NCBI RefSeq assembly: GCF_007754155.1
Contig: NZ_CP037423.1
Location: 10,040,938-10,104,937 of the forward strand
From: Stieleria neptunia
Lineage (GTDB): Bacteria; Planctomycetota; Planctomycetia; Pirellulales; Pirellulaceae
Direction of reading: 5' to 3'
DNA: 64,000 nt
Below the pieces are notes generated by a model. It did no database searches, was not told where the DNA came from, and saw only the letters and a program-made list of their open reading frames with translations. Every line of letters starts with the position of its first letter. The stretch's first letter is position 1. A program made the position numbers and the translations under genes. Below are positions 1-6,571 of this stretch, one piece after another.

Positions 1-1
1 C

Positions 2-610
2 ATGAAACGCTTCGCAACCACCTTCGCCGTTGTCGCCCTCCTCGCCACCGCTGCATTCACCGGCAACGCCCACGCCCAAGTCTCTGCATCCAGCTACTCG
101 ACCGGCGGCACCGCCGTCTCGAGTGCTTACGGCCGCGGCAACACGCGGTTGAATTCCTCGGCTTACGCCAGCGGCGGCGGCTACGCCCGATCGACGATGA
201 CCGGCCGCGGAGTCAACGGCGGTTTCGCCAGCGGCAACAGTCGAGCCGTCTCCCACGGCGGTGTGGCGATCAGCAACGGCAACTCGTCGGCCAACGGCTG
301 GGGTGCCCGCTCGCACTCCAATTCCCAGGCTCGCACCGTCGGCGGATTTGCCCGCAGCAACAGCAACGCGGTCGCCAACGGCAACTGGGCCAACGCCCGC
401 TCCAACGCCGTCACCCGAACCTGGGGCACCTACGGCAGTTCGTCCTCCGAAGCGATCGACAATCGCCGGTCCACCAATCCCGTTTATCCGACCAACACGC
501 CCAGCTACACCGGCGGCAATTACAGCAGCGGAACGACGGCAACGGTCTACCAAAACTCGACACCACGAGCGACCGTCTTCCGCAGCCGCAGCGTCCGACG
601 CGGCTGGTGA
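2..610 (+). CDS. Exported Ser/Asn/Gly/Ala-rich low-complexity protein
   Basis: This 202-residue protein begins with a clear signal peptide (MKRFATTFAVVALLATAAF, then an Ala-rich stretch ending near AHA-Q at residue 26), so it is probably exported. The rest is built from Ser, Asn, Gly and Ala with recurring short patterns such as SNSNA, NGN and NARSN, and no enzyme motif is visible. The final 40 residues are richer in Tyr, Thr and Pro and end in a basic RSRSVRRGW tail. The composition suggests a surface or matrix protein or a repetitive beta-structure, but this is inference. The start codon sits at the extreme left edge, so its ribosome binding site cannot be seen. I do not recognise the family. 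Confidence 0.75.
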   Translation: MKRFATTFAVVALLATAAFTGNAHAQVSASSYSTGGTAVSSAYGRGNTRLNSSAYASGGGYARSTMTGRGVNGGFASGNSRAVSHGGVAISNGNSSANGWGARSHSNSQARTVGGFARSNSNAVANGNWANARSNAVTRTWGTYGSSSSEAIDNRRSTNPVYPTNTPSYTGGNYSSGTTATVYQNSTPRATVFRSRSVRRGW

Positions 611-1057
611 GCCAGACGCCGAAACCATTTCTCCCGGCCTCGCACCGTTATCGGTGCGGGGTTTCTTTGTCATCCGAACCATCCAGTGGGATAGGCTTCC
701 AGCCTGTCAATTCAGTGGGAGAGGCTTCCAGCCTCGAATGGCGCGACCATGGAGGTTGGTATTGGGCTATCGGAACGGTCCAGCATAGAAAAAACGCGAA
801 ACGCGACTCAAAACAGCGATCTGGTCGATTGAGTGTGATGCGATCAGCCGATCGTTGTACGACGTCCTTTCTAGGTCGTCGGGAAGAGTCCTCCGGACGA
901 CGGCCCGGAAGGGCCATCGTACGTGCGAAAAGCGGTCGTCCTAAGATGGACGGTCCCTCAAGACAAAACACCAACGGATTGCCGAATCCCTTTTTACTTC
1001 TGCCCGCTCGATCCTAAACTAGTAGATACCGATCCCCCCCTTACCCCCGGATCCGCC
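611..1057. other. Intergenic region with short repeats before the graspetide precursor
   Basis: No credible gene is seen in these 447 bases. Two direct copies of a roughly 22-base sequence (AGTGGGA[T/G]AGGCTTCCAGCCT) lie near 685-735, and a dispersed palindromic element occupies 857-922. The promoter of the precursor gene at 1058 must lie here or further upstream, but I cannot identify it. Confidence 0.5.
857..922 (+). repeat. Dispersed palindromic element (GTACGACGTCC family)
   Basis: This 66-base element starts GTACGACGTCCTTTCTAGGT and ends CCGGAAGGGCCATCGTAC. Its ends form an inverted repeat (GTACGA/TCGTAC), with an internal CGTCGTCC-type stem. The same element recurs inside each 205-base tandem unit at 29615-30350 and inverted at 34908-34973. 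Confidence 0.8.
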
Positions 1058-1840
1058 ATGTCTGACCCCCATCCCAACACCGATCCTGCTGTGGACGCGA
1101 TCGTCGAACAAGCCCTTCGCGGTGAAGTCCCCCGTCGCGATTTTCTGCGTCGACTGGTCGTCGCCGGACTGTCTTCGGCGGCTGCGTACCAGGTCCTCGA
1201 TGAAACCACAGCGGCGGCACAATCCGGTGGCTCAGGGCGGATCACCACCTTTGCCATCGGTGAAGAAGGCAGCACGCCCAAGCCGCCGACTCAAAAACCT
1301 TCGCCGAACCCTCCGATGACGACGCTAGCGGTCGGCGAAGAGTCGACGAAGCCGCCGGCAAACCAAGTCACCACCCGCGCCGTCGGCGAGGAGTCGACCA
1401 AGCCGCCGACGCCTCAAGCCACGACCTATGCCGTCGGCGAAGAATCAACCAAACCGCCGACCCCTCGGGCCACGACCTATGCCGTCGGCGAGGAATCATC
1501 CAAACCGCCGACCCCTCGGCCCACGACCCAAGCCGTCGGCGAAGAATCAACCATGCCGCCGACGACACTGTCCTATGGATTGGGCGAAGACGGACGACGT
1601 GCGACGACGATGGCCGTGGGGGAAGAAGGCCGACCGACGCCCAAACCCACCACGACCAACTGGTCCGGCGAAGAGTCTCGGGTGACAACCCATGCGGTGG
1701 GTGAAGAATCCAACAGCGTCCCGAAAGCCACCACGCTGGCCTGGGGCGAAGAAGGCTCGATCAAGAAGCCGCAATTCAAAGTGCCCTCGAGTCCCTTCAA
1801 GAACATCCCCCGGCCGTGGAAAAACTTTCGCCGTTGGTGA
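1058..1840 (+). CDS. Multi-core graspetide (plesiocin-like) precursor peptide
   Basis: This 260-residue protein is a likely precursor of ester-crosslinked RiPPs. Residues 1-60 form a leader containing PRRDFLRRLVVAGLSSAAA (about 25-43), which resembles a twin-arginine signal. Residues 63-232 hold eleven cores. Ten match TTxxxxEE exactly (TTFAIGEE, TTLAVGEE, TTRAVGEE, TTYAVGEE twice, TTQAVGEE, TTMAVGEE, TTNWSGEE, TTHAVGEE, TTLAWGEE). The seventh is a variant, TTLSYGLGED. Pro/Lys linkers such as STKPPTP separate the cores, and four units repeat at exactly 17 residues. A basic tail (about 27 residues, ending RPWKNFRRW) follows. TTxxxxEE is the known core signature of plesiocin, in which Thr side chains are esterified to acidic side chains by an ATP-grasp ligase; such a ligase begins 22 bases downstream. 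The start was set at 1058 (MSDPHPN) because longer in-frame upstream sequence looks non-coding. Crosslinking here is inference. Confidence 0.88.
   Translation: MSDPHPNTDPAVDAIVEQALRGEVPRRDFLRRLVVAGLSSAAAYQVLDETTAAAQSGGSGRITTFAIGEEGSTPKPPTQKPSPNPPMTTLAVGEESTKPPANQVTTRAVGEESTKPPTPQATTYAVGEESTKPPTPRATTYAVGEESSKPPTPRPTTQAVGEESTMPPTTLSYGLGEDGRRATTMAVGEEGRPTPKPTTTNWSGEESRVTTHAVGEESNSVPKATTLAWGEEGSIKKPQFKVPSSPFKNIPRPWKNFRRW
1244..1753 (+). repeat. Eleven-copy core repeat region of the graspetide precursor
   Basis: The DNA between the first Thr codon of core 1 and the last Glu codon of core 11 is internally repetitive. Cores 2-6 lie on a near-perfect 51-base period. Later cores are spaced irregularly (11-16 residues), which suggests growth by unit duplication followed by divergence in the 3' half. 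Confidence 0.85.
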
Positions 1841-1862
1841 TCGTCCGAGCGAAACGCAAGAC

Positions 1863-2723
1863 ATGAATGCAAGAAACATCGACTTGGTGATCGTCGGCGG
1901 TGAATCCGACCCCAACACCCGGCGGATCGTCGACCAGGCCCACCTCCGCGGCGTCGATTATTTTTTCTGGGACACCGACCGGCCGGGCGCGCGTCAGATC
2001 GCCTGGGATTTTCAATCGCCGGAAATCGATTTCGGCGACGTGGCGTTGCGGCCTGCGGGAATGTTTCTGCGTTTCAATGTGTTTGACTCCGACGCGGCCG
2101 CCAATCACGCCGCCTACGACGTCGCCGAATCGTTCGCACTTGCTTGGGCAAACATTCGGTTGCTCAACCGAAGCACGACCGGTGACGGCAACAACAAGTC
2201 GCGCAACCTGGTCCGCGCCCGCCGCTGCGGGCTTGTGATTCCACAAACCACCGTGTTGGGTGACCTGTCGCCGCTGGAAAGCGTCCCCGACCCGAATCTC
2301 AAGATCATCAAACCGCTGGCCGGTGGCGACCACGCCTTCATCGCCGGCGATGTCATCACTGACCCCTCGCGGCTCCCCGGACTCGCACCGCAGTTCGTCC
2401 AGGAACGACTCGACGGCGAAAACCTGCGCGTCTTTTCGATCGGCGGCAAACTGCACGCGTTTCATTTGCAAACGACCGAAATTGATTATCGAACCGACGA
2501 CGACGTGGTCGTCCACGCCACCGCGGTTCCGGAGCAGATTGTTGCATCGGTCCATCAATTGGTCGAACAAATCGGTTTCGATTACTGCGCGCTCGACTTC
2601 CGCTGTCGAGACGGATTCCGCGATCCGGTGTTCTTGGAAATCAACTCGTTCCCGATGTTTGTGGCGTTCGACGACGCCTGCGAAAACAGGCTTGCCGACG
2701 CGATTTTGGAGTTTCTGGTCTGA
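1863..2723 (+). CDS. ATP-grasp peptide ligase (graspetide synthetase)
   Basis: This 286-residue protein has the layout of RimK/MvdD-like ATP-grasp ligases: an N-terminal pre-ATP-grasp part (residues 1-110), then the ATP-grasp fold. Visible motifs are the lysine strand KIIKPLAGG (about 147-155), the adenine-binding segment QERLDGENLRVFSIGGK (about 179-195), a DYCALDFRC strand, and the metal-binding Glu/Asn motif VFLEINSFP (about 255-263). Enzymes of this family phosphorylate acidic side chains of a precursor and join them to Thr/Ser hydroxyls (or Lys amines). Its position 22 bases after the multi-core precursor, same strand, argues that the precursor is its substrate. The start ATG lacks a strong ribosome binding site, so translation may be coupled to the precursor. 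A generic RimK-like ligase is the alternative. Confidence 0.9.
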   Translation: MNARNIDLVIVGGESDPNTRRIVDQAHLRGVDYFFWDTDRPGARQIAWDFQSPEIDFGDVALRPAGMFLRFNVFDSDAAANHAAYDVAESFALAWANIRLLNRSTTGDGNNKSRNLVRARRCGLVIPQTTVLGDLSPLESVPDPNLKIIKPLAGGDHAFIAGDVITDPSRLPGLAPQFVQERLDGENLRVFSIGGKLHAFHLQTTEIDYRTDDDVVVHATAVPEQIVASVHQLVEQIGFDYCALDFRCRDGFRDPVFLEINSFPMFVAFDDACENRLADAILEFLV

Positions 2724-2773
2724 AAGAGTACACTGCCGGCTGGCTTTCACCGCTATTTGCAAGGTCGGCAGGA

Positions 2774-3346
2774 ATGAATCAGCCCCCCAACGACGTCTCG
2801 ATGATGCTGCGTGAACTCGGACGCGGCAATGATTCCGTCAAAGAACAACTGTTCGAACAACTCCAAAGCGAGCTTCGACAAATGGCCTCGGCGCTGATGC
2901 GCCGCGAACGCAGCGACCACACGCTGCAGGCCACGGCGCTGGTCAATGAAGCCTGCATTCGGTTGCTCGATTCCGATGCGATCGGCAACGCGACCGACCG
3001 CCGCTATTTCTTCGCCGCCGCCAACCGCGCGATGCGTCAAATCTTGATCGACCACGCGCGACGACGGAACACAACCAAACGTGGCGGCGAGTACCAGCGC
3101 GGATCGTTGGACGTCGTGCTGGAGAATTTTGAGAACAGCAACGGCTGCCGGTTCGAAGACTTGGAAGCGTCTCTGGAAGTACTCGAAAAAGACTCGCCGC
3201 GGCAGCGCGAAGTCGTCGAACTGCGGTTCTTCTCGGGATTGTCGATCCCCGAAACCGCCGAGGTGCTCGGCGTCAGCGAGGGGACCGTCGAACGCGATTG
3301 GCGTTTGGCCAGGGCCAAGTTGTATCAGCAACTGCGCGAAGAATAG
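2774..3346 (+). CDS. ECF-type RNA polymerase sigma factor, TIGR02999-like
   Basis: This 190-residue cytoplasmic protein matches the planctomycete-rich ECF sigma family (Sigma70_ECF / TIGR02999). Region 2 is seen in the segment with HTLQATALVNEACIRLL, RRYFFAAANRAMRQILIDHA and the following basic stretch. Region 4 is the C-terminal helix-turn-helix (RQREVVELRFFSGLSIPETAEVLGVSEGTV). No anti-sigma factor is adjacent. The gene starts 50 bases after the ATP-grasp ligase on the same strand, so it may be co-transcribed and might direct expression of the RiPP genes, although genes of this family are scattered widely in planctomycete genomes. Confidence 0.9.
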   Translation: MNQPPNDVSMMLRELGRGNDSVKEQLFEQLQSELRQMASALMRRERSDHTLQATALVNEACIRLLDSDAIGNATDRRYFFAAANRAMRQILIDHARRRNTTKRGGEYQRGSLDVVLENFENSNGCRFEDLEASLEVLEKDSPRQREVVELRFFSGLSIPETAEVLGVSEGTVERDWRLARAKLYQQLREE

Positions 3347-3465
3347 AAAGCCATACCCACCGATGGCACGGGCCTACGTGTGGGTGTGCAGGCTTTAGCC
3401 GCCCGGTGTCGCTGCTCGGGACGTCGATTTTATTACTGCCGGATTTGGCAACCTATATATAGATT

Positions 3466-3518
3466 CCCTCCCTCTGGGAGAGACGGCGTTTGCGCAGCAA
3501 GCAAACGCCAGAGAGGGC
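3466..3518 (+). repeat. Dispersed hairpin element (GGCGTTTGC/GCAAACGCC)
   Basis: The segment runs from CCCTCTGGGAGAGACGGCG through an inverted pair GGCGTTTGC/GCAAACGCC to CAGAGAGGG. A near-identical copy lies at 52946-52993. The outer CCCTCTGG and CAGAGAGGG parts also pair, giving one long hairpin. The rest of 3347-3660 shows no gene. Confidence 0.7.
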
Positions 3519-3660
3519 CCGCGCTGCAAACGTCTTATCGACTTCCGCGACGATCAACTCCGCCACTTATACAATCGACGTCCCCCGCAGCGAGTAGGAA
3601 CGCCTAAAGGCTGGACACCAACGGTTGCTGAATCCCGTACCATTCTTACCTGGCGTCTGT

Positions 3661-3707
3661 TCCGCTCGACAAACGCAACGTCAAACTTGAACGTCGTCAA
3701 CGCACTA
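3661..3707 (-). repeat. Partial CTAG-bounded dispersed element overlapping the yedK stop
   Basis: On the minus strand this sequence starts TAGTGCGTTGACGACGTTC and ends GCGTTTGTCGAGCGGA. It is a diverged partial copy of the element ends at 27141-27188 and 39973-40020. Its first triplet is the TAG stop codon of the SRAP gene. Confidence 0.65.
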
Positions 3708-4445
3708 GAACAGATCCTGCTGCTGCGATGCCCCTTCCGACAACTCGATGCGCTCGACGCACTCCGGCACATCGTTGCGGGGACTGTTGACGGTCCTTGA
3801 CACCGGAAAGGCGGTCAGCAGATCGTTAGGCGCCGGTCGCAGCAACTCGCGCAGGGAACTCGGATCGTCGAGTCCTGTTTCCAGCCATGCCGCTTGCCCG
3901 TCGGCGTCCAAGATCACGGGCATCCGATCGTGTATCGACCGCGTCGTGTCATTGGCCGAGGTGGTCAAAATCGTGAACGTTTCGATCGGCCGATCATCAC
4001 CGTGAATTTTGCGGTTGCGTTCCCAGAGCCCGGCCAGCGCCAGCACGCTGCCATCGCTGGGCTCGATCAAGTAAGGCTGTTTCCCATCGGCCGTCTTCAT
4101 CCATTCGTAATAACCGTCGGCGGGGATCAGACAGCGTCGCTGGGCAAACGCTTTTTTGAACGACGGTTTCTCATGCACCGTTTCGCTGCGGGCGTTGATC
4201 ATCCGATTGCCGATTGCCAGGTCATCGGCCCAGGATGGGACCAGTCCCCAACGCAGCATCACCCACTCGCGACGTGGGTCCTCCGCGGCGCGGATGCAGG
4301 ACACGTTTTGGGTCGGCGCGATGTTGTACCGCGCGGTGCTTTCATACTCGGCGGCCTTGGCTGCGATCTCCTCGTCCGACCACAGGGGCAAAAACTCTTG
4401 CGTCCAAGCGGCCGCGGGAGTGCGAAGATTGATGCGACCACACAT
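3705..4445 (-). CDS. yedK: SRAP family DNA-protein crosslink protein (HMCES/YedK)
   Basis: This 246-residue protein is a full-length SOS-response-associated (SRAP) protein. It starts MCGR, so Cys2 becomes the N-terminal catalytic residue after Met removal. Other family marks are INARSET (the conserved Asn that assists ring opening), PADGYYEW (catalytic Glu) and IHDRMPVIL (catalytic His). SRAP proteins react covalently with abasic sites in single-stranded DNA and shield them from breakage, forming a thiazolidine link through Cys2. It has no obvious operon partner, and is flanked by dispersed repeats on both sides; its TAG stop lies in the end of one such repeat. Confidence 0.95.
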   Translation of the reverse strand: MCGRINLRTPAAAWTQEFLPLWSDEEIAAKAAEYESTARYNIAPTQNVSCIRAAEDPRREWVMLRWGLVPSWADDLAIGNRMINARSETVHEKPSFKKAFAQRRCLIPADGYYEWMKTADGKQPYLIEPSDGSVLALAGLWERNRKIHGDDRPIETFTILTTSANDTTRSIHDRMPVILDADGQAAWLETGLDDPSSLRELLRPAPNDLLTAFPVSRTVNSPRNDVPECVERIELSEGASQQQDLF

Positions 4446-4472
4446 GATGACGAGTCTCTGGCGTGCTCTTTG

Positions 4473-4678
4473 TTAGCGGTAGGGCGCGAGCCCTCCGGTC
4501 GTTCACCGCGTTCTCAACGCTTGCACCGGACGGCTCGCGGGCTGTCGATTTCGTCGGGATCTGCTGAGTCAATGGTGAGCCGCTGGCCGTCAGGCCTCGG
4601 GCAGCGTCGCAGTGCCCGGCCGCTTACGCGTCGCGGCTCACAAAAACGACAGCCCGCTCGCGCCGTTCCGCTAACCCC
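4473..4678 (+). repeat. Composite dispersed repeat (GCGAGCCCTCCGG family)
   Basis: The block is bounded by TTAGCGGTAGGGCGCGAGCC and a matching GCGCCGTTCCGCTAA end. Inside is GGCTGTCGATTTCGTCGGGA, then GAGCCGCTGGCCGTCAGGC and GCCGCTTACGCGTCGCGGCTC, then CGACAGCCCG, giving nested inverted arms. Related copies lie at 6683-6880 and 35106-35303, with short versions at 26927-27003 and 60340-60420. The remaining 4679-4981, upstream of trkH, shows no gene or clear promoter. Confidence 0.75.
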
Positions 4679-4981
4679 TTCGATGCCCCAACAAGTGTAT
4701 CAATTTGCGTGTTGCAGAATGCATCGATTGCCGCATCGTCTCGGCGCCGGCCTCGGGCCGAATCGAACCGAATCAGACACGGAAAAACACGCAAAAAGTG
4801 GCGATCGACGCCGCCTCCAGCGCCGACCGCCTGACCGTCGTTCATCCCCTGGGGAAGGGTTATTCGAGGCCGGGAGAGTTGAAAAGCAAACCGGATGCCA
4901 AACGCCACCCGCGACATTCTGCACAAACGCACTACAATCCTGGCGGAAAACCGCTGATTCCCCCGACAGGACCCGCAAGCC

Positions 4982-6571
4982 TTGAATTTTCGACTTCTCA
5001 GCCGCGTGCTCGGCATCGTCTGTCTGCTGATCGGCGGATCGATGAGTTTCAGTCTGCCGTTTGCGTTTCCGCTGCTGGCCAACCGGACCCATCTGCCCGC
5101 GGCCGAGGCGTTGGAACGCGAGGGGATCCAAGGTCTGGTCTTGAGCATGGCGATCAGCTTGTTGGTCGGAACACTGCTGTTGGTCAGCGGACGCGGCAAT
5201 CGCGGTAAACCGCTGTTTCGCAAAGAGGCGATGGCCGTGGTCGGACTCAGTTGGGTGCTGGCGACCGTGCTGGGCGCGTTGCCGTACTACTTGAGTGGAA
5301 CCGAAATCGCCGCCGATCAATCGATCACGTTCATCGAGGCGATGTTCGAATCTCAGTCCGGCTTCAGCACGACCGGCGCGACGATTCTGACGGACTTGGA
5401 GAACCCGAGCTCCGTTCCACACTGCATCCTCTTTTGGCGCAGTTGGACACACTTTCTGGGCGGATTGGGGATCGTCGTGTTGTTCGTCGCCATCCTCGGC
5501 CAAGGTTCCGCCGGCAAGGCGATGGTCCGCGCCGAAATGCCGGGGCCGAGCAAGGAAGGTAGCATGCCCCGGATGCAACACACCGCGCTCGTCTTTGCCG
5601 GCATCTACTGCGGCTTGAACGCGATCCTGACGGTGATCTACATGCTCGAAGGCATGACGCTCTTTGACGGGCTGTGTCACGCCTTTGGCACCATGGCCAC
5701 CGGGGGCTTCAGCACGTACAACCGGTCGCTGGGCGGATTCGACAGTCCACTGATCGAGTACACCACCATCCTCTTCATGATCCTGGCCGGTACCAATTTC
5801 ACGTTGCTGTATTTGACCTTGGCCGGCGGGCCACGACAGTTGTTTCAAGACGTGGAGTTTCAAACCTTTATCGGAATCATCGCCGGACTCAGCGGGTGCA
5901 TCTTGCTGTTCGGGATGCGTGCCGGTGATGTCGGCTTTGAATCGCTCGGGCAAGGATTTCGCAATGGGCTGTTTCAAGTCGTCTCGGTGATGACGACCAC
6001 CGGCTACGGGACGGCCGACTTCGATCGCTGGAACAACTTCGCCCGCGGCAGCCTGCTGGTGTTGATGTTCATCGGCGGATGCGCCGGCAGCACCGGCGGC
6101 GGAATGAAAGTCATTCGGCACGTGCTGTTCTACAAGATCCTGCTTCGCGAGATCGAACTTTCGTACCGCCCCCGCGTCGTCCGACTGATTCGGATCGGCG
6201 GCAACACCGCCGACGATCCGGCGATGCTCCGCGGCATCATGGTCTACTTCTGTTTGATCCTGGGAATTTTCATCGCCTCATGGATGCTGTTGGTCACCTT
6301 CGAACCGAGCTCGACGTGGGGCTATTCCGAGGAATCAGCGGCGCTGGCCGAAGACAGCACGCTGGACGAAAAACTGTTGGATTGCGCCAGCGCCGTCGCC
6401 GCCACGCTCAACAACATCGGTCCCGGACTCGGCGTCGTCGGCGCGACGCAGAACTACGCCGGATTCAGCCAAGGCGCCAAGTTCCTGTTCGTCTGGCTGA
6501 TGCTGCTCGGACGCGTCGAAGTGTTTAGCGTGCTGGTGTTGGTCTTCCCGACCTTCTGGCGACGGACGTGA
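4982..6571 (+). CDS. trkH: TrkH-family potassium uptake membrane subunit
   Basis: This 529-residue inner-membrane protein is the ion-conducting subunit of a Trk-type K+ transporter. The four degenerate selectivity-filter repeats are visible as [35 protein letters not shown] and NNIGPGLG. About ten membrane helices surround them, and the C-terminus ([19 protein letters not shown]) is the usual TrkH ending. The start is TTG at 4982, chosen because family members begin with a comparable short N-terminus before the first helix; the next in-frame ATG (5042) would cut into that helix. The regulatory partner TrkA is not next to it, so it must be encoded elsewhere. Confidence 0.95.

What the first reader, a model, noticed from the sequence alone, without database searches (positions are those of the whole stretch)
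1058..2723. Multi-core plesiocin-type graspetide system with eleven TTxxxxEE cores
The precursor repeats the plesiocin core signature ten times exactly and once as a variant, and an ATP-grasp ligase starts 22 bases downstream. Plesiocin-class precursors known to me have a few cores, so eleven in one 260-residue protein is unusual. If each core gains two Thr-Glu/Asp ester links, the product would be a chain of crosslinked hairpins or many short peptides. No dedicated protease or exporter gene is adjacent.
Basis: partly seen in the sequence, partly recalled or inferred. Interest (0 to 1): 0.92.

Follow-up and report, generated by a model that had tools for sequence, protein, structure and literature searches.

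The report
Tat-tagged eleven-core plesiocin-type graspetide pair
A planctomycete bacterium carries a two-gene kit that probably cross-links one protein into a string of eleven tiny loops and ships it out folded; the chemistry is of a known kind, but the export tag and a possible tail-end docking site look new.

Summary
A 260-aa precursor (1058-1840) carries ten TTxxxxEE cores plus one variant; a 286-aa ATP-grasp ligase starts 22 bases downstream. The ligase's nearest solved relative by sequence is PsnB, the plesiocin ligase, also first by predicted fold (close to others), so the plesiocin-type reading holds at sequence level; no chemistry was shown. First, the precursor starts with a twin-arginine (Tat) type signal (RRDFLRR, AAA|Q 29 residues on), which could supply the missing export and cleavage. 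Second, it ends WKNFRRW. In all 18 genomes with a close ligase (this one included) such a precursor lies upstream, ending W..[FW].RW; 17 show the Tat motif, the eighteenth is cut by a contig end. No protease or transporter is shared among eight neighbourhoods read. I propose that the tail recruits the ligase (a natural 'follower'), freeing the N-terminus for export; an AlphaFold tether test did not support this. Eleven cores is not exceptional: relatives have 3-12, others up to 17. Core position 3 varies on a fixed scaffold, as a multi-headed protease inhibitor would, though no more than the linkers. New variant of a known kind.

The parts
1058..1840 (+). Precursor gene, 260 aa, ten TTxxxxEE cores plus one variant
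   Evidence: 148 homologues at E<=1e-3, best 120 listed
1058..1219 (+). Tat-like signal peptide, residues 1-54, predicted cut AAA|Q
   Evidence: RR.[FL][LFI] in 48 of 48 family members, an A.A-Q-like site in 46 of 48, 29 residues after RR in 37 of those 46; one homologue is named 'Twin-arginine translocation signal' in UniRef; TatC in the genome. No signal predictor was run
1133..1153 (+). Twin-arginine motif RRDFLRR
1244..1753 (+). Core array: strict cores start at 1244, 1319, 1370, 1421, 1472, 1523, 1604, 1652, 1685, 1730; variant LSYGLGED at 1568-1591
   Evidence: the DNA pattern finds nine of the ten strict cores
1814..1837 (+). C-terminal motif PWKNFRRW, proposed ligase recognition (follower)
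   Evidence: W..[FW].RW end in 18 of 18 genomes found by ligase search alone, this one included; one DNA match to the motif pattern in the whole genome, this one; AF2 tether test not supportive
1863..2723 (+). ATP-grasp graspetide synthetase, PsnB-like, 286 aa
   Evidence: K150, D245, E259 and N261 invariant in the 94 sequences aligned

Best explanation
A two-gene graspetide cassette. (1) The PsnB-like ligase phosphorylates core Glu side chains and closes Thr-Glu esters in each TTxxxxEE core, up to 22 esters (20 if the variant is not modified): inferred from homology, not shown. (2) The product is a chain of small bicyclic hairpins joined by Pro-rich linkers. (3) The N-terminus is a Tat-type signal: the modified, constrained chain leaves the cytosol through Tat and signal peptidase cuts at AAA|Q, so no dedicated protease or ABC exporter is needed: inferred from motif and conservation. 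(4) The C-terminal W-x-x-F-x-R-W tail is the likely ligase-recognition element, taking the role that N-terminal leaders play elsewhere: hypothesis. (5) The exported product is most likely a multi-headed serine-protease inhibitor, the variable core position 3 setting specificity: inference from plesiocin and the variability pattern.
For: Ligase: NCBIfam graspetide maturase models (TIGR04187 1.5e-12, far below its cut-off); PsnB best in PDB by sequence and first by fold; AF2 pLDDT 94. A D-[YFW]-R stretch aligns with PsnB, CdnC and AMdnB, and K, D and E-x-N align with PsnB. Cassette: flanking genes differ between lineages. Tat; the stretch VPRRDFLRRLVVAGLSSAAAY is identical in six aligned orthologues, the window's included, while linkers vary. 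Tat-like signals (loose RR pattern) plus cores recur in another precursor class with N-terminal HPF (14 of 120; L095 with a PsnB-like ligase next to it, L094 with one on the opposite strand). C-terminus; 44 of the 48 best precursor homologues have it. 26 other multi-core homologues end in PFG.[FY], and none of these has HPF or Tat by the patterns used; truncations point to RPFG as a key recognition sequence of fuscimiditide, in a leader that also works when moved C-terminal (PMC13003496, passages). Inhibitor: core position 3 has entropy 3.46 bits against 1.21, 2.24 and 0.03 at positions 4-6 (positions 1, 2, 7, 8 are fixed by the search pattern); it changed in 24 of 48 orthologous comparisons against 2, 0, 0, 0, 0 of 48 at positions 1, 2, 6, 7, 8. 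Plesiocin is a serine-protease inhibitor whose potency rises with motif number (PMC13097080, passage).
Against: No ester bond, export or inhibition has been measured. AF2 of a precursor tail tethered to its ligase left the tail at pLDDT about 28, so docking is not supported; the tether is short and the test weak. Position 3 changes about as fast as linker positions (24/48 against 17/48, 26/47 and 29/48) and has similar entropy (3.46 against 3.26 and 3.33), so relaxed constraint explains it as well as selection for specificity. The Tat call rests on motif and conservation; no signal predictor was available. 17 of 120 listed homologues have neither Tat nor HPF nor a recognised C-terminal motif. 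The 48 precursors in the C-terminal statistics were chosen by their C-terminus; the 18 genomes were not. The fold comparison alone hardly separates PsnB from PruB, AMdnB or RimK.
Confidence: 0.7

Rival explanations
1. The N-terminal stretch is an ordinary graspetide leader that binds the ligase; RR-F-L is coincidental or dual-use, and a host protease cuts the product into eleven or so small hairpin peptides.
For: The graspetide precursors described in the papers I saw carry N-terminal leaders (PMC12291112 passage; PMC8939145 section 5); the N-terminal stretch is conserved well beyond RR; for bufferins there are preliminary results that the signal peptide is part of the recognition sequence (PMC12452194 passage). 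The AF2 tether test did not support the tail as the docking site.
Against: 48 of 48 family members keep RR and 46 of 48 an A.A-Q-like site at a near-constant distance, which a pure leader would not need; no conserved cleavage motif is evident in the linkers.
Confidence: 0.3
2. The exported, ester-cross-linked repeat protein is a structural or surface component rather than a protease inhibitor.
For: Single long chain with Pro-rich linkers and a conserved core scaffold, no neighbour shared between lineages that would suggest a target or immunity; variability at position 3 is no higher than in linkers.
Against: In 2022 all characterised graspetides were said to be protease inhibitors (PMC8939145 passage); plesiocin is one (PMC13097080 passage).
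Confidence: 0.25
3. The ATP-grasp enzyme does something other than ester cross-linking, for example RimK-like glutamate addition.
Against: PsnB, PruB and AMdnB rank above RimK (small differences); the profile search finds six sequences, all graspetide synthetases (PruB's role recalled); the cores match the plesiocin core motif (recalled).
Confidence: 0.04

Closest known systems
Plesiocin (PsnA2/PsnB), graspetide group 2
   Same: TTxxxxEE cores repeated along one precursor (motif recalled); one PsnB-like ATP-grasp ligase
   Different: Plesiocin has four cores (PMC12291112 and PMC5934393 passages); here 11, with a Tat-like N-terminus, a conserved C-terminal tail and no adjacent peptide transporter, while group 2 has high co-occurrence with an NHLM-type transporter (PMC13097080 section 7)
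RODEO graspetide groups 34 and 35 of PMC13097080 (2026)
   Same: Long precursors with repeated motifs; group 35 clusters hold only synthetase and precursor
   Different: Members are listed in supplements I could not read; this cassette may belong there, so its class may already be catalogued
MNIO RiPPs with C-terminal recognition and a signal peptide (DybA; preprint PMC12636315)
   Same: Works alike: the enzyme recognises a C-terminal motif, leaving the N-terminus free for a secretion signal (abstract passage)
   Different: Other enzyme class and chemistry; lipoprotein signal, not Tat
Fuscimiditide ThfA with leader moved C-terminal (PMC13003496)
   Same: Recognition sequence works behind the core
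   Different: Engineered, not natural; other core type

Membership tests
Graspetide, plesiocin type (group 2) | TTxxxxEE core repeated in the precursor (that this motif defines group 2 is recalled) | tested here: met
   ten strict copies, shuffle maximum 2 in 20,000
Graspetide, plesiocin type (group 2) | Adjacent ATP-grasp ligase related to PsnB | tested here: met
Graspetide, plesiocin type (group 2) | Ester cross-links formed by the ligase | not testable with these tools
   needs co-expression and mass spectrometry
Graspetide, plesiocin type (group 2) | LFIE-like N-terminal leader motif (PsnA-type, recalled; not defining for graspetides at large) | tested here: not met
   none in 120 listed homologues before the first core by one regular expression, and none seen in the window's protein by eye; visible in other planctomycete precursors L097-L100
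Graspetide, plesiocin type (group 2) | NHLM-type transporter nearby (frequent, not defining) | tested here: not met
   window neighbours are ECF sigma, SRAP, TrkH; none shared in eight further neighbourhoods, judged by eye from ORF lists
Tat substrate | RR-x-F-L motif, moderately hydrophobic stretch, A-x-A cleavage site (consensus recalled) | tested here: met
   by motif; no predictor run
Tat substrate | Tat translocase in the genome | tested here: met
   TatC; TatA not searched
Tat substrate | Tat-dependent export | not testable with these tools
   needs bench work
Follower-guided RiPP | C-terminal sequence binds or activates the ligase | tested here: inconclusive
   conserved in 18 of 18 genomes and found once in the own genome, but AF2 tether pLDDT about 28

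The most novel reading that the evidence does not exclude
A natural graspetide whose ligase is recruited by a C-terminal follower, with the N-terminus given over to Tat export, so that a chain of up to eleven ester-closed hairpins is folded first and then exported whole as one multi-specific protease inhibitor. The same division of labour would recur in relatives that end in PFGxF/Y, start with HPF plus Tat, or carry a WXG100 (type VII secretion) domain.
Probability: 0.35. Interest if true: 0.75.

Novelty: new variant of a known kind. Interest (0 to 1): 0.6.

Why it matters
How graspetides leave the cell and lose their leaders is mostly open: the cleaving enzyme was unknown in 2022 (PMC8939145 section 5), none was known for graspimiditides in 2025 (PMC12291112 passage), and one microviridin leader protease was reported in 2026 (PMC13039773, title and start of abstract in a listing only). 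A precursor with its own Tat signal would answer both questions for this family and solve the timing problem, since Tat takes folded cargo (recalled). A natural C-terminal recognition tag would give a short portable handle for cross-linking proteins whose N-terminus must stay free.

Tried and rejected
Eleven cores as the surprise: rejected; the family reaches 12 (looser pattern, L026) and other precursors 16-17.

C-terminal tail as a general sorting signal: a DNA pattern for W-K-[NSDG]-F-[RG]-R-W found one place in the 10.98-Mb genome, this one, so a genome-wide sorting signal of this form is unlikely.

AF2 tether test: the tail of a precursor (L060) was read on through its stop into its own ligase so that a docked tail would show as confident. 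Residues 1-40 stayed at block means of 28-40 (the motif block 28) while the ligase blocks were mostly 85-98: no docking predicted. With a 15-residue linker and 5 linked rows of 57 this is weak evidence, but it is against the follower idea.

A search of the own genome with the N-terminal 63 residues found nothing else below E 0.2, so the Tat-like stretch is not shared at sequence level with other exported proteins here. Rfam: no match at 1-5000. Precursor against PDB sequences: nothing up to E 10; an LFIE-type precursor (L098) gave one antibody match at E 1.6, taken as chance.

Weak ligase hits in 18 further genomes (E 1e-9 to 8e-4): no multi-core precursor nearby in the 12 of them whose loci were held; the other six were not looked at.

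Not done: TatA search, signal-peptide prediction, coordinates or contacts of the models, supplements of PMC13097080. The two papers, the nine (planctomycete papers that mention RiPP) and PMC13418204 were not opened.

Full report
The window lies at 10040938-10104937 of a single-contig 10.98-Mb genome. Close ligase homologues are named Stieleria, Rhodopirellula and Roseiconus, so the host is a planctomycete of or near Stieleria (family Pirellulaceae, recalled).

Observation. The precursor ORF 1058-1840 encodes 260 aa and the ligase starts at 1863, 22 bases on. Ten exact TTxxxxEE and one variant were counted; 20,000 residue shuffles gave at most 2. The variant TTLSYGLGE is kept in all six orthologues aligned, the window's included, so it is not simple decay.

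Linkage. 13 of 60 genomes (own included) had a ligase match, all in the same genus. In 241 genomes of the family, own included, 36 matched: 18 strongly (E 2.1e-135 or better) and 18 weakly. All 18 strong-hit genomes have the multi-core precursor upstream; in one (G009) it is cut by the contig start. The gap is usually short but 323 bases in L057. One same-genus genome (G011) has no ligase.

Neighbourhood. Eight further neighbourhoods (L055-L062) were read by eye from ORF lists. The ECF gene downstream is found again in L057, L059 and L060, the secreted-looking upstream gene in L055, L058 and L060; L056, L061 and L062 have neither nearby. Single neighbourhoods do hold transporter- or peptidase-like ORFs by eye (for example an MFS-like ORF beside the ligase in L055, an ABC-ATPase-like and a carboxypeptidase-like ORF in L056, ABC-transporter-like ORFs in L057), but none is shared between lineages. 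The conserved unit is the pair.

N-terminus. In the 48 listed homologues ending in [WF]..[FW].RW, RR.[FL][LFI] is in 48 and an A.A-Q-like site in 46, 29 residues after RR in 37 of these. RR, the following F-L-R and a Gly at +11 are nearly invariant. UniRef calls one homologue a twin-arginine translocation signal protein. TatC is present. Tat-like signals with cores also occur in another class starting with HPF (14 of 120, loose RR pattern).

C-terminus. The 18 genomes found by ligase alone all end W..[FW].RW, as do 44 of the 48 best precursor homologues (of the four others two look cut off or chimeric and two end in PFG.[FY]). In the six orthologues the last residues are invariant while linkers vary. 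Across the 120 listed homologues the three candidate recognition placements never coincide: 48 with C-terminal [WF]..[FW].RW, 26 with C-terminal PFG.[FY], 23 with N-terminal HPF, and 23 with none of these. Truncations of fuscimiditide's leader point to RPFG as a key recognition sequence, and the leader works C-terminally when engineered (PMC13003496; abstract, introduction and passages seen). Makarova et al. describe P-h-h-x-h leader motifs (PMC8939145 section 5). The likeness of PWKNF to these is my inference. The AF2 tether test did not support docking.

Cores. 363 strict cores in 48 precursors: positions 1, 2, 7, 8 are fixed by the search pattern, position 6 is Gly in 362, position 4 Ala in 287, position 3 very mixed. 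Among orthologues position 3 changed in 24 of 48 comparisons, positions 4 and 5 in 6 and 5, and linker positions -1, 0 and 10 in 17/48, 26/47 and 29/48. This fits an inhibitor loop that varies at one site, but also simple tolerance there.

Wider distribution. A core DNA pattern hit 84 of 392 phylum genomes at least once, many with a single hit as the backward control also gives. I fetched 12 stretches from nine genomes chosen for arrays: eight stretches, from eight genomes, have a PsnB-like ORF (E 3.3e-19 or better among the ORFs scanned), four (L096, L097, L100, L103) do not; L100 is cut by a contig end. In L093 and L094 the ligase-like ORF is on the strand opposite to the array. Their precursors use other N-termini: HPF plus Tat-like (L094, L095, L096), LFIE (L097-L100), FFVEELEQR (L102), others or cut (L093, L101, L103, L104).

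Literature. 'graspetide' with 'planctomycet' gave two papers with one planctomycete mention each, not opened; with 'twin-arginine' none; with 'Rhodopirellula' none; with 'signal peptide' three: one seen by passages, one in a passage on accessory lipoproteins (PMC8939145), one not opened. RiPP plus twin-arginine plus precursor peptide plus signal peptide gave none. Nine papers hold planctomycet, RiPP and Stieleria, not opened. PMC13097080 (section 7 read) has new groups 34 and 35 with long repeated precursors; membership could not be checked.

Verdict. A plesiocin-type graspetide pair in a new wrapping. My estimates by step: ester-forming ligase-substrate pair 0.93; Tat export 0.75; C-terminal follower 0.45; protease inhibitor 0.6.

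Noticed in passing
P0172: A WXG100 domain (type VII secretion) followed by nine GEE/GED repeats: graspetide-like cores on a different export-targeting domain.
   Followed up: partly
P0216 and P0218, P0223, P0224, P0235, P0236: Multi-core TTxAxGEE proteins with a Nif11-type leader (Pfam hit only for P0216, the only one scanned; the others look alike among themselves by eye).
   Followed up: partly
P0162, P0167, P0198: PrcB C-terminal domain (PF14343) followed by 9-16 strict cores and a C-terminal PFGxF/Y.
   Followed up: partly
L095 2477-3640 -: Cores at both ends of a protein with a core-free middle part and no Pfam hit, next to a PsnB-like ligase.
   Followed up: no
window 2-610 +: Secreted-looking Ser/Gly/Asn-rich 202-aa protein without Pfam hit, upstream of the pair in most same-genus loci and in L055 and L058.
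   Followed up: partly
window 681-734: Two 25-nt direct repeats (92% alike, 29-nt spacing) between the upstream gene and the precursor.
   Followed up: no
window 1568-1591: Variant core TTLSYGLGED kept in all six aligned orthologues; ester pattern unclear.
   Followed up: partly
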